Shown: in pieces, positions 15,248-63,377 of the stretch
Numbering within the stretch: position 1 is the first letter of the stretch
Layout: every line of letters starts with the position of its first letter
Translations under genes and position numbers: made by a program
Source: Senegalimassilia faecalis
GTDB taxonomy: Bacteria > Actinomycetota > Coriobacteriia > Coriobacteriales > Eggerthellaceae
Reading direction: 5' to 3'
NCBI RefSeq assembly: GCF_004135645.1
Contig: NZ_SDPW01000001.1
Coordinates: 2,170,001-2,234,000, forward strand
DNA: 64,000 nt
The notes under the pieces: generated by a model
Databases searched by the model: none
Seen by the model: the letters and a program-made list of their open reading frames with translations, nothing else
What the model was told of the DNA's origin: nothing

Positions 15248-15398
15248 GAGTGAATTTTTCCTTGCGCGCCAGCGTCCACAAGGCGGACACATGCCGGCAC
15301 CCATCCGCCATCGAGTGCTGAGGGGGTCCTGACTGCAGCGCAATGTTTCGGCGCTAGACGCGTTTTCGGTTGATTTCTTTCCGTTTTAGACACATTTT

Positions 15399-15700
15399 TG
15401 GCATCTTACTTTCCGAGTTAGACACAAACCCCAGGTCATAAGCGTGGCGAGAGGAGCGCGTTTTAGACGCGTGGCACGTTTTGGGACTTTCCGAGCCTTC
15501 GTACATTTCGCGGCGATTTTTTGGCACGATTTCGAACTTTCCGAATGTTGCCACATTGCGAATTCGCCGCAGAGGGCCACGTGGGGCACGATTTCGAACT
15601 TTCCGAATCTAGCGAAGTTGCAAGAGATTCGGAAAGTTCCGTTTCGTGCCAAAACGGAACGCTTTAGCAACCGAAGGCTCGGAAAGTTCGAAATCGTGCC
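15399..15700. repeat. Cluster of 25-bp GGCACGATTTCGAACTTTCC repeats
   Basis: Five 25-bp units, each starting GGCACG and ending ACTTTCCGA(A/G)(T/C)C or close to it: 15473-15497 (+), 15523-15547 (+), 15585-15609 (+), 15626-15650 (-) and 15676-15700 (-). A decayed copy lies at 15399-15417. Spacers are 15-37 bp and unrelated. Opposite-facing copies can pair into long hairpins. No gene lies between 15248 and 16020; downstream at 15720-15890 there are only degenerate GGCAAGGCGAGCGGC-like repeats. Confidence 0.8.
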
Positions 15701-16002: not shown

Positions 16003-16020
16003 AGCGCCAATGAATTCTGT

Positions 16021-16190
16021 TTCAGGGCGAGGCGCAAATCCTCACTGGCGGTAACCAGAAGCGCCTGTTTGCGGCATGCAAGCGGCGGGCTGGAAGTCCG
16101 CGACCCTGTGCGTTGCAGGCAGCTGTACACGCAAGGCTGACCCGGTGCGAATCCGGGACCAACGGTGACAGTCCGGATGGAAGAGGCAGA
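16021..16190 (+). ncRNA. FMN riboswitch (RFN element)
   Basis: Recognisable conserved blocks are AGGGCGAGGCGCAAATCCTC, ACTGGCGGTAACCAG, GGCTGACCCGGTGCGAATCC, GGACCAACGGTGACAGTCC and GGATGGAAGAGGCAGAG. This is the six-stem aptamer that binds flavin mononucleotide. With the terminator at 16246-16286 it should switch off riboflavin uptake when FMN is plentiful. Confidence 0.93.
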
Positions 16191-16245
16191 GTTCGCGATG
16201 CGCATCGCGCGGCCGGCGGCCGCGGCGATTTCACGTTGAGCGAAT

Positions 16246-21418: not shown

Positions 21419-21560
21419 AAAAATCGCTCATGTATGTGATTTAATGGCGACAGTCCGACAGCCTTTAATTATTCGCATCGCAGTGACCTGGGCAAATGCT
21501 CTTGCTATCATGTCATCAACTTGCTGCTACTGAGTTAAATCACATACATGAGCGCTTTTT
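21419..21560. repeat. Inverted-repeat element, copy 1 (142 bp)
   Basis: Left arm at 21419-21444 and right arm at 21535-21560 share TCGCTCATGTATGTGATTT, inverted. The centre carries TGACCTGGG (21484-21492), the complement of CCCAGGTCA found centrally in the other copies. No flanking duplication is seen. It lies upstream of the DUF1292-like gene and downstream of the secDF terminator. The rest of 21182-21667 holds no gene. Confidence 0.9.
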
Positions 21561-38817: not shown

Positions 38818-38831
38818 CTTACAAAAGCGAT

Positions 38832-38943
38832 GGCTCTGTTAGACCAGCATGCAACAACATGAATCAGCCGCCAGGAAGACCGGCCAAGGAGCCCGTTTAC
38901 TTGCGGTTAAGAGTCCACGTGTCAATTGTGGTCTAACAGAGCC
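38832..38943. mobile_element. 112-bp MITE with ISL3-like ends
   Basis: Perfect terminal inverted repeats GGCTCTGTTAGACCA at 38832-38846 and 38929-38943. Flanks are AAAGCGAT on the left and AAAGCGAC on the right, 7 of 8 matching, an 8-bp target duplication as made by ISL3-family transposases, whose ends also start GGCTCT. The interior encodes nothing. Confidence 0.75.
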
Positions 38944-38970
38944 AAAGCGACAGAGCTTTCGCCGGTTTGC

Positions 38971-42004: not shown

Positions 42005-42144
42005 AAAAATCGCTCATGTATGTGATTTAACAAGCGCAAGGCAGGAATCAAAAATTTGCCGATAACGTTTCCCCAGTTCAGAATCTTGCTGATTTATTGG
42101 ATACCAGCAACATTGTCAGCAAATCACATACATGAGCGATTTTG
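42005..42144. repeat. Inverted-repeat element, copy 2 (140 bp)
   Basis: Arms 42005-42030 and 42121-42144 share TCGCTCATGTATGTGATTT, identical to copies 1 and 3. The centre has CCCCAGTTCA (42071-42080). It lies 126 bp beyond the stop of the broken dmsC-like gene. Confidence 0.9.
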
Positions 42145-47646: not shown

Positions 47647-47826
47647 TGACAAGGGGACAGGTCGTTTGTCATATGGCAGGTCGAAAACAGCGCTTGGGGC
47701 CGAGGAAACAGTTTGCCCCAAGCGGAAGTTCGGCTTTCGGCCACACCGCAGCAAGAAGACGAAACAGGGTTGCTAGCAACAGTCTACTGAAGCGAACAAC
47801 ATGACAAACGACCTGTCCCCTTGTCA
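47647..47826. repeat. 180-bp structure bounded by 26-bp inverted REP-like arms
   Basis: TGACAAGGGGACAGGTCGTT at 47647 continues to 47672 and returns inverted and perfect at 47801-47826. Inside is a GCTTGGGGC/GCCCCAAGC hairpin (about 47690-47725). The GACAAGGGGACAGGTC theme is typical of REP sequences moved by RAYT (TnpA-REP) transposases; no such gene is in the window. A related palindrome is at 62041-62075. It ends 64 bp before the LuxR start. Confidence 0.8.
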
Positions 47827-59843: not shown

Positions 59844-60272
59844 AACGCGCCCGCCACACGCCCGCCATGCCCTCGCCGTCGACGCCAATGGCGAGGGCAA
59901 CGCAAAACCAGCGGGGGCACGCGCCTCGCCAGCAACCGAGAAAACGAAATCCTTTCATTTTCTCGGCTATTTCTCAACATCCTAAAATCGATTTTCGTTT
60001 CGTCGAATTCGGCGTGAAATGTAAATGGCATTTCAGTTCCCAAGCGAATATGCCGGAAAACCCAACCCTCTCTACCAAGCGTAGGTTGCCGGAAGCTGTG
60101 CTTGGCCGCACAATGCTCTTTGTCAACAAGCAGTGAGACAAGCTGCCGCGCAAAACTTCCGTTAGTTTGTGTTTTAACGCAAACCAGCCAAATATCAAAC
60201 AAACCTGGACCTTCATTTTCCCAGGTCAAACGTTTGTACTGCATTTAGCTACCCAAAGCAATCCCAGCATCA

Positions 60273-60317
60273 TTTCACTCCCAAAAGTCAAACGAAATTA
60301 AAGTTTTGGGAGTGAAA
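60273..60317. repeat. Perfect 14-bp inverted repeat
   Basis: TTTCACTCCCAAAA (60273-60286) and TTTTGGGAGTGAAA (60304-60317), loop 17 bases. A bidirectional terminator or an element end. A smaller hairpin CCGAGAAAA ... TTTTCTCGG lies at about 59936-59967. The gap 59844-60460 has no gene. Confidence 0.65.
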
Positions 60318-60942: not shown

Positions 60943-61084
60943 CAAACTCGCTCGAGTTTGGGGACTTGTTAGGCCGCCAACACGCACCCCCTCTATGCAC
61001 ACCACTCTGAACTGGGAAAACATGCGACCGTCATCCGCAAGGAACCACACCACCAACGTTAAGTCCCAAACTCGAGCGAGTTTG
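60943..61084. repeat. Inverted-repeat element, copy 4, variant arms (142 bp)
   Basis: Arms CAAACTCGCTCGAGTTTG followed by GGGGACTT (60943-60967) and its complement with one G fewer (61061-61084). Total length and central core TGAACTGGG (61008-61016) match copies 1-3. The arm aligns with theirs (AAA-TCGCTC--GT-TG-G-A-TT), and its differences are matched in the opposite arm. Confidence 0.75.
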
Positions 61085-61147: not shown

Positions 61148-61288
61148 AAAAATCGCTCATGTATGTGATTTAACTCGGTTAGGTGAAGTACAAGCTCCAG
61201 TCCTATTTACATAACCCCAGGTCAAAAGGTTGCGTGTCAAACGGCTACTCAACCGATTGCCAACAAATCACATACATGAGCGACTTTT
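61148..61288. repeat. Inverted-repeat element, copy 3 (141 bp)
   Basis: Arms 61148-61173 and 61265-61288 with TCGCTCATGTATGTGATTT. Central core CCCCAGGTCA at 61214-61223. Starts 63 bp after copy 4. Confidence 0.9.
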
Positions 61289-61345: not shown

Positions 61346-61544
61346 CGAAACGGCCCCTTCAGCTGAGGGGCTTTCCTGTTTGCTTGTCGAACAATCCGGT
61401 GGACGCTCGATGCGTTACGAACTTGTCAACGTTCGTCCAGACCAAACGCCTGCTGCTCGCCGCAGAACGCAAAACGGCCCCTTCCGCTTGGAGACATCCT
61501 GTTTGCAAGGGGGTTAGGGGAAGGAAGTCTCCAAGCGGAAGGGG
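61346..61544. repeat. Pair of AAACGGCCCCTTC hairpins
   Basis: Two direct copies of AAACGGCCCCTTC-GCT ... TCCTGTTTGC start at about 61346 and 61472. The first folds as GCCCCT-TCAGCTG-AGGGGC; the second pairs CCCCTTCCGCTTGGAGAC (61478-61495) perfectly with 61527-61544. No gene between 61289 and 62332. That gap also holds a GGGCGGAG/CTCCGCCC terminator-like hairpin (61862-61883). Confidence 0.65.
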
Positions 61545-62040
61545 GCACCATAGGTGGTGGGCCGGAAGATGCGAAGGAACCCGGCGAGCCGGGCCTGGTT
61601 TTCAAGAAACCGGCGCGCCGCCGGAATCGCGAAACGGCCGATCAGCCGCCTGTTTCCGGCCAACCTAACAAGAGGACAGGGCGGTTTCAAGCGGTCATCG
61701 CAACATCGATCAATGGCAGATGGCCTGCAATGGGATGCGACAGCAAAACCAGGTACGAGGCGATAACGGCCGTCAGGGACGGATGTTCCCTCCGCCGGGC
61801 CGCCGCAAGGACTGGCGTCAGTGAGCAACGGGGGTTGCCCGCCAGCCGCCGCTTTCCGTAGGGCGGAGCGAAAACTCCGCCCCTTCTAGGCAGCGCCCGA
61901 AGAGCGCGTCACCATCTTCCAGGGAGCGTGGACGACTTAATATGGTGTCGCGCCTCGCGCTCTCTTGCTGGGACCGAGCTCTCGCTCGGCCCTACGAGGA
62001 GCGAGCAGCAGGAGCCGGGCAGCAAAATCCAATCGTCTGC

Positions 62041-62332: not shown

Positions 62333-63211
62333 TCAGTAGAACATGAACACGCTCAGGCCCATGTTGTAGAAGGCCACGCGCAGGCAGATGGCGCCGACGA
62401 CGCCTGCCACCACGGCCACGGCGCCGAACGCCTTCCAAACCGCCGCGTCGCCCTTCTTGCGGGCAAGCACGCAGCACACCAGCGGCACCAGCGCGCCCAC
62501 AACCACGGCACCCAGCCACAGAAGCGGCGCCTGTCCGGCCGCCGTCGCGGCCGCATTCGCCATCTCCTTCGTGGGCACAGTGGGGTCGAAATAATACCCC
62601 ACCTGCGTAAACGCGCCGCCGCCCATCTGGATAACGGCCGCATACGCCGCCGTGCACGCGGCGCCCACGGCGGAACCCACCACAGCCGGCAGGCCGCACA
62701 CGTCAACCGCGTCGCCCTTCGCGGCCAGCACCACGGCGCACGTGGCGGGCCCCAAAATGCACGCGGCGCCCACGATCGACAGCACCTCAAGCACGCTATT
62801 CCACACCGGGCGCGCCGCCATCATGTACGAATGCGCGCACACCGCGGCCAGCACCACCGAAATCGCGATGGCAACCCACGCCATCCACTTCGGCACGGTG
62901 CCGCCGTCGGCCGACTTGCGCGCCATGGCGAAAAACGCCACGGCCACCACCACGAACACGACGATCGCGATCAGCTCCTGCGTAATGCCGCTGGTCAAGT
63001 GCCCGAAACCGTTGAAGATGCGCTCCCAATGCTGCAGGTGGAAGAACACCGCCACGCCGGACGCCGCCAGAAGCACGCAGCTCAAAACCGTCAGCAGCTG
63101 CTGCGACTTCTTGCCCGCGCCCGCAAGCGCCAGCACGCCCTGGCAGCCGAACACGCCGGCCGACCAGGCCACCAGCGTGGTGAACAAAATCAAAGGCCAT
63201 TGCAATTCCAT
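62333..63211 (-). CDS. dmsC: DmsC/NrfD-like membrane anchor subunit
   Basis: 292 residues, about eight helices, starting MELQWPLILFTTLVAWSAGV. ATG 63211 has GGAAGG 9-10 bases upstream; a Met three codons earlier is less likely. Family features: HLQHWERIFNGFGHLTSGIT, MMAARPVWNSVLEVLSIVGA. It oxidises menaquinol for the neighbouring DmsB-like subunit. Intact counterpart of the broken gene at 42271-43077. Stop TGA. Confidence 0.88.
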   Translation of the reverse strand: MELQWPLILFTTLVAWSAGVFGCQGVLALAGAGKKSQQLLTVLSCVLLAASGVAVFFHLQHWERIFNGFGHLTSGITQELIAIVVFVVVAVAFFAMARKSADGGTVPKWMAWVAIAISVVLAAVCAHSYMMAARPVWNSVLEVLSIVGAACILGPATCAVVLAAKGDAVDVCGLPAVVGSAVGAACTAAYAAVIQMGGGAFTQVGYYFDPTVPTKEMANAAATAAGQAPLLWLGAVVVGALVPLVCCVLARKKGDAAVWKAFGAVAVVAGVVGAICLRVAFYNMGLSVFMFY

Positions 63212-63212
63212 G

Positions 63213-63377
63213 CTACTCACCTTCCTTCACAGGCACCGCGGCGCGGGCGGCCGGCCCGCACCCGGCCGCGCAGGCGGCAACTGCCGCGTCGCCCGCGCAA
63301 GCCTTGGTGCCACTTTCCAGGCGCGCGCCCGCCCCCGCCGCGCGGGAAAGCGGAACAATCACGCCAGTCACCGTCAT
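63213..63377 (-). CDS. 54-residue small protein nested between dmsB and dmsC
   Basis: ATG 63377 overlaps the TGA of dmsB (ATGA) and its TAG 63213-63215 ends one base before the dmsC ATG, so the frame exactly fills the gap with coupled junctions at both ends. Sequence starts MTVTGVIVPLSRAAGAGARL and has three Cys in ACAG...ACAAGCGPAA. No signal peptide or helix is certain. The ribosome site for dmsC lies in its last codons. No family recognised; coding status is inferred from position. Confidence 0.5.
   Translation of the reverse strand: MTVTGVIVPLSRAAGAGARLESGTKACAGDAAVAACAAGCGPAARAAVPVKEGE

What the first reader, a model, noticed from the sequence alone, without database searches (positions are those of the whole stretch)
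60943..61084. A fourth copy whose two arms changed together
This element has the same total length (142 bp) and the same centred core (TGAACTGGG), but arms built on AACTCGCTCGAGTTTG. Aligned with copies 1-3 the arm keeps TCGCTC and the GT-TG-G-A-TT pattern, and each difference on the left is mirrored on the right. Coordinated change of both arms points to selection on pairing (RNA stem or DNA cruciform) or to co-evolution with a protein that reads both ends.
Basis: partly seen in the sequence, partly recalled or inferred. Interest (0 to 1): 0.7.

Follow-up and report, generated by a model that had tools for sequence, protein, structure and literature searches.

The report
Dispersed mini-elements with type-specific paired ends
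The 142-base inverted repeat is one of at least 33 small, apparently mobile, non-coding elements in this bacterium (family Eggerthellaceae), each with matched ends at a fixed distance around a 15-base centre that recurs across the family; the "co-changed" arms are the signature of a separate element type, not of paired compensating mutations.

Summary
The inverted repeat at 60943-61084 is real (20/20 bp arms, centred core). It is not a lone fourth variant. It is one of 7 full copies (plus 2 halves) of arm type A; copies 1-3 belong to arm type B (25 genome copies). Each B copy has near-invariant arms, an arm gap of 92-94 bp, a central TGAMCWGGGNAAAYG-like core and an almost unrelated interior. 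A same-genus genome carries three further arm types on the same plan. Across the family the core occurs in 59/95 genomes (reversed-pattern control 0), and about half of the sites examined outside the genus lie inside inverted repeats with unrelated arms. Within types, arm changes are mostly one-sided (80, against 25 identical on both sides, 14.5 expected by chance), so selection on base pairing is not supported. Copy positions differ between the two species (0 of 8 informative loci shared) and some interiors are recognisably copied, so the family is dispersed and probably mobile. No RAYT-type transposase was found. Best reading: a REPIN/Correia-like miniature element whose ends are read in trans by an unknown protein. 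Armless cores form a cross-genus promoter footprint between molybdoenzyme and LuxR-type genes, so the core is probably a host regulator's site.

The parts
60943..61084 (.). Type A element (the finding): inverted arms 60943-60962 and 61065-61084, continuing to 60967 / 61061 with one extra base on the left
   Evidence: type A pattern search; geometry
61008..61022 (+). Central core TGAACTGGGAAAACA of the type A element
61148..61288 (.). Type B element, 63 bp to the right of the type A element (heterotypic pair)
61210..61224 (-). Core TGACCTGGGGTTATG of that type B element
60151..60308 (.). Degenerate type D element; arms CAAAACTTCCGTTAGTTTGTGTTTTAA / CAAAACTTTAATTTCGTTTGACTTTT; not called by the automatic scan, recognised by eye
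60214..60228 (-). Core TGACCTGGGAAAATG of the type D element
42006..42143 (.). Type B element (core TGAACTGGGGAAACG, minus strand, 42066-42080)
21419..21560 (.). Type B element (core TGACCTGGGCAAATG, plus strand, 21484-21498)

Best explanation
The element is a non-coding, dispersed miniature element of the REPIN / Correia (MITE-like) kind. Shown: two inverted end sites, fixed spacing, a conserved asymmetric central site, intergenic placement, species-specific positions, several arm types with the same plan. Inferred: a trans-acting end-binding protein (a transposase not yet identified, or a domesticated one) binds both ends and copies the unit to new intergenic sites. Because the same protein must read both ends, a type has one end sequence on both sides; a new type arises as a new lineage with its own reader variant, which looks like 'coordinated change' when one copy of type A is compared with type B. 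The interior is free to drift except for its length, the GTA/TAC triplets about 18 bp inside each arm, and the core, which probably binds a host regulator.
For: 25 B copies with nearly invariant arms and an arm gap of 92 (15 copies), 93 (9) or 94 (1), while interiors average 38% identity. Closest interiors are 54/74 identical, above every column-shuffled maximum (46), so copies descend from one another; in that pair the arms are identical (0/54 against 20/74 changes, Fisher 7e-6). All 25 B copies are intergenic: 13 tandem, 7 convergent, 2 divergent, 3 not called. 0 of 8 informative loci are shared between the two same-genus genomes. The same plan with arms E, F, H in that genome. Within-type changes mostly one-sided. 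Neighbouring genes are ordinary and of no common family.
Against: No RAYT/IS200 transposase (PF01797) in the genome; other transposase families were not searched. No longer element with B ends was seen: all B arms found pair at the standard spacing except one odd site. No target-site duplication, although copies may be too old. Insertion boundaries could not be read because intergenic DNA of the two species is too diverged. Rigid spacing and arm conservation in old copies suggest host-level selection rather than a decaying mobile element. One pair locus (A+B in the window, H+E in G002) shares a neighbouring gene. F arms show an excess of matched changes (11 against 4.5 expected).
Confidence: 0.58

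Rival explanations
1. Host nucleoprotein module: a protein bound at both arms, about 11 helical turns apart, closes a DNA loop around a regulator or bending protein at the core, for regulation or nucleoid folding; dispersal is secondary.
For: Mirrored arm spacing 115-117 bp = 10.95-11.14 turns in B and E (H 117-118, F 113-114; A more variable, 114-120), with hardly any length change despite diverged interiors. Arms conserved in every copy, unlike decaying MITEs. The core occurs without arms as a promoter footprint conserved over three genera.
Against: Few elements lie in divergent promoter regions (2 of 22) and 7 lie between convergent genes; spacing differs in other genera; positions are not shared between species.
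Confidence: 0.2
2. RNA stem-loop: transcripts of the element fold into a long hairpin with the core in the loop and act on mRNA stability, as reported for Correia and ERIC hairpins.
For: Both strands fold far better than shuffles (z -4.3 to -7.6), as any such inverted repeat must. Often between genes in the same direction.
Against: Arm changes within types mostly one-sided; no left-right pairing beyond the arms; core in both orientations in similar numbers; no Rfam family.
Confidence: 0.1
3. Invertible DNA (phase-variable switch): the segment between the arms is flipped by a recombinase.
For: Inverted arms around an asymmetric centre; core in either orientation.
Against: Many copies are not upstream of any gene; neighbours of no common family and no recombinase among the families shown. 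The whole genome was not searched for recombinases and no read data are held.
Confidence: 0.07
4. Ordinary MITE of a known insertion-sequence family whose transposase is present but unrecognised here; nothing beyond decay of interiors.
For: Terminal inverted repeats, small size, dispersal.
Against: Old copies should lose arms as fast as interiors, but arms are conserved; no element with distant B ends; the A and B arm patterns searched are absent from the viral contig collection.
Confidence: 0.05

Closest known systems
REPINs (inverted REP doublets mobilised by RAYT transposases; PMC3116915) and REP dimers (PMC3733652)
   Same: Two inverted conserved ends, variable spacer, intergenic, several end types in one genome; some published REP dimers have spacers of similar length but different sequence; the type A arm is itself palindromic (CCCAAACTCG-CT-CGAGTTTGGG)
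   Different: No RAYT (PF01797) in the genome; no GTAG or CGTC tag at the end of the palindrome; a conserved asymmetric core sits in the middle; B arms almost never occur singly; not all arm types are self-palindromic
Correia repeat enclosed elements / NEMIS of Neisseria (PMC2649163)
   Same: About 105-157 bp, terminal inverted repeats, directional conserved core, an internal host-protein (IHF) site in the longer forms, variant end sequences
   Different: Correia elements have a conserved core sequence throughout; here only ends, spacing, a GTA/TAC triplet and the 15-bp core are kept; sequences unrelated
ERIC repeats of enterobacteria (PMC2267715)
   Same: About 127 bp, intergenic, can form one long stem-loop
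   Different: Different sequence; here complementarity is confined to the ends
10-12-TM LuxR regulators of Eggerthella lenta (PMC9734109)
   Same: Several armless cores lie between genes for a molybdenum oxidoreductase and a membrane LuxR (GerE) regulator
   Different: The passages of that paper that were searched give no binding motif; the link of the core to these regulators is an inference

Membership tests
REPIN / REP doublet | Two conserved ends in inverted orientation with variable spacer, dispersed in intergenic DNA | tested here: met
REPIN / REP doublet | Associated RAYT (Y1) transposase gene in the genome | tested here: not met
   PF01797: 0 matches in the own genome, control rings in 5 of 14 named genomes
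REPIN / REP doublet | GTAG or CGTC tetranucleotide tag directly at one end of the palindrome | tested here: not met
   No such tag at the arm ends; a GTA triplet occurs about 18 bp inside the arms
MITE | Terminal inverted repeats, no coding capacity, evidence of dispersal | tested here: met
MITE | Target-site duplication | tested here: not met
   No flanking direct repeat above chance in 24 B copies; age may have erased it
MITE | Autonomous partner with the same ends | tested here: inconclusive
   No widely separated B arms in the genome; transposase genes at large were not searched
Correia element | Sequence similarity of ends and core to Correia repeats | tested here: not met
   Ends and core differ by eye from those quoted from PMC2649163
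Structured RNA | Compensatory base-pair changes in the stem | tested here: not met
   80 one-sided against 25 matched changes, 14.5 expected; no interior pairing
Known RNA family (Rfam 15) | Match at gathering score | tested here: not met
Inverton | Both orientations seen at one locus within a population | not testable with these tools
   No read data and no close strain held

The most novel reading that the evidence does not exclude
A family-wide system in Eggerthellaceae in which a host regulator's binding site is packaged between two end-binding sites, in this genus at a constant spacing of about 11 helical turns, and spread as a unit by a mobility protein of an unknown kind, with new end types replacing old ones in each species while the central site stays the same.
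Probability: 0.18. Interest if true: 0.75.

Novelty: new variant of a known kind. Interest (0 to 1): 0.5.

Why it matters
If right, this is a transposase-orphan relative of REPINs in Eggerthellaceae with an unusual feature: the end sequences turn over between species and genera, whereas a 15-bp central site is found in 27 of 42 genera of the family and also occurs as a promoter footprint beside respiratory enzyme genes. That makes two questions directly testable: which protein reads and spreads the ends, and which regulator binds the core. The literature library searched gave no description of the motif, the arms or such elements in this group.

Tried and rejected
Target-site duplications: none above chance. 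Left-right pairing of interiors: none (observed complementarity below the cross-copy mean). RAYT/IS200 transposase: none. Rfam: none. Common neighbouring gene family: none. Viral contigs with A- or B-type arms: none. Inside-out short arm pairs: only one B site in the genome and none of E type in G002. The idea that all arms are 22-bp self-palindromes: only B and H weakly (p about 0.02), A only in another register, C, D, E, F not. Armless cores prefer divergent promoters: only a weak trend (5/12 against 3/16, p 0.23; 0.046 when pooled with the B copies), not relied on. Orientation of cores along the chromosome: no clear bias by eye. Error noted: some stretches were turned round by mistake (1097409 and the minus-strand hits); corrected from then on, tallies unaffected.

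Full report
What was checked. The inverted repeat at 60943-61084 is in the sequence as described: arms of 20/20 complementary bases, 142 bp in all, TGAACTGGG at 61008-61016 in the middle. The genome is a 2.75 Mb assembly (62% GC in the window) whose same-genus relative G002 is Eggerthellaceae bacterium UBA5906; the family name for the window rests on that kinship.

It is one of a family. The B arm TCGCTCATGTATGTGATTT has 51 matches in the genome with up to 3 mismatches, 0 for the reversed control, and all but one pair up at a fixed distance, giving 25 elements. The A arm of this finding gives 7 full elements (core positions 508633, 836743, 873816, 948879, 1099110, 1857787, 2231008) and two halves (1986295, 2118486). 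Single elements of types C (2541896) and D (window 60151-60308, degenerate) were also found. In G002 the three H elements each have an E element, or an E-like arm and core cut by an assembly gap, beside them, so heterotypic pairing recurs in the second species.

Anatomy. Read along the core, an element is: arm; GYTG or similar; GTA about 18 bp inside; core TGAMCWGGGNAAAYG; TAC about 18 bp before the other arm; TTAA or similar; arm. The arm-to-arm gap is 92-94 bp in all 25 B, 92-93 in all 17 E, 88-89 in all 10 F and 92-93 in the 3 H copies examined; A varies from 90 to 96. Interiors average 38% identity among B copies, yet a clade of four (1857913, 2300378, 2305040, 1098910) holds pairs more alike than any column-shuffled set, up to 54/74. 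In the closest pair the arms have no change in 54 positions against 20 in 74 interior positions (Fisher 7e-6). So copies arise by copying, after which the ends and the spacing are kept and the rest drifts.

Do the arms covary? Between types, yes by definition. Within types, mostly not: counts of one-sided / identical two-sided departures from the type consensus are B 11/1, A 15/1 (plus 2 two-sided but different), E 28/10, F 22/11, H 4/2. The 25 identical two-sided changes compare with 14.5 expected if arms varied independently, 8.2 of them in E. F has a moderate excess, as sub-lineages would give. Interiors show no left-right complementarity beyond cross-copy controls. The hairpin folds well on both strands, which any such inverted repeat does. 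Selection on pairing is therefore not supported; constancy of each arm towards its own type consensus is.

Placement and mobility. All 25 B copies are between predicted genes: 13 tandem, 7 convergent, 2 divergent, 3 not called (simple codon-score gene calls). Where genes on both sides have neighbouring counterparts in the other species, the element is absent there: 966779, 1098856+1099110, 1857787+1857971 and 1943260 are empty in G002, and G002 C31:8385, C122:4539, C181:62030 and C75:3794 are empty here. The window pair is an exception of sorts: G002 has an H+E pair beside the counterpart of the same gene (62333-63220, DmsC-like), but on the other side of a short conserved stretch (61479-61546) and with a different gene on the far side. 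Neighbouring genes are ordinary housekeeping and transport genes. No target duplication was found and no Y1 transposase.

Across the family. TGAMCTGGGRAAAYG without mismatch occurs in 59 of 95 genomes and 27 of 42 genera of the family, the reversed pattern in none. Of 62 core sites from other genomes examined (almost all other genera; two G001 sites of the same genus and a few from other families of the order included), 53% lie inside an inverted repeat scoring 12 or more, against 1.3% of control positions in the same loci. The arms are unrelated in sequence from genus to genus and often within a genome (L169: 33/33 bases; L102: 22/22), and their distance from the core varies there.

What the core may be. 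Three armless cores in three genera (L085 of this genome, L273, L287) align as one footprint, TGAMCTGGG.AAACG followed after about 17 bases by TTATGTGACACG, in the divergent region between a molybdopterin oxidoreductase gene and the same type of membrane regulator gene; the GerE domain is confirmed in L295 (this genome) and L297, not in the L298 frame tested. A second such region holds an armless core in both this genome (2237183) and G002 (C145:9208), and a third is in G022. Membrane LuxR regulators paired with such enzymes are known from Eggerthella lenta (PMC9734109), but the passages found there name no binding motif. Other armless cores lie near transport and catabolic genes. The core is thus probably a host regulator's binding site; which regulator is open.

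Judgement. The anatomy and behaviour match REPINs and Correia elements most closely, but two defining features of REPINs (RAYT, terminal tag) were tested and not met, so it is filed as a new variant of the miniature-element kind and not as a REPIN. Inferred and not shown: that a protein reads the arms, that it mobilises the unit, and that the core binds a regulator in these elements. The spacing of about 11 turns (115-117 bp at 10.5 bp per turn) resembles looped operator pairs such as gal of Escherichia coli (from general knowledge, not tested).

Noticed in passing
L038 / L272 (G000:C1:2623517-2623663): Inside-out short pairs of both arm types side by side: AAATCACATAC..GTATGTGATTT and AAGTCCCAAACTCGA..TCGAGTTTGGGACTT, each 64 bp in all, between a cation-efflux-like gene and a uracil-DNA-glycosylase-like gene (names by eye); the only B-type site of this layout in the genome.
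   Followed up: partly
L085, L273, L287; L210 and L200; L105/L296: Armless cores between divergent molybdopterin oxidoreductase and membrane regulator genes (GerE confirmed in several), with a conserved TTATGTGACACG downstream in three genera: a candidate operator for a regulator of anaerobic respiration genes.
   Followed up: partly
window 15385-15700 and 1927-2067: A second kind of repeat with long inverted arms (GGCACGATTTCGAACTTTCCGAAT; GTGCAGGATTTCGAACTTTCCG); a core-like CCCCAGGTCA lies at about 15430; arms resemble TTTCTGGC..TTCGAAATTCCGAGG of genome G006.
   Followed up: no
window 47647-47826: 180-bp inverted repeat with 26-bp arms TGACAAGGGGACAGGTCGTTTGTCAT; similar text near 1857k and 1992k in the same genome.
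   Followed up: no
window 38831-38944: 114-bp inverted repeat with 16-bp arms TGGCTCTGTTAGACCA.
   Followed up: no
G000:C1:2239286 and 785036; G002:C145 about 11135: Genes that are neighbours across an element in G002 lie at two distant places here, each beside a B element: a possible rearrangement breakpoint at these elements.
   Followed up: no
G000:C1:1755154 and 2711078: Two B copies identical inside and in the flanks shown, with the same distances to neighbouring genes: probably a duplicated segment.
   Followed up: no
L265 (G000:C1:2112290, 2120316-2120474): Another arm type, AAACCATCGCGAAGTGCGTAGGTTGA, around degenerate cores, three hits within about 8 kb.
   Followed up: no
window 16014-16192: FMN riboswitch (Rfam RF00050, 89.3 bits).
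   Followed up: no
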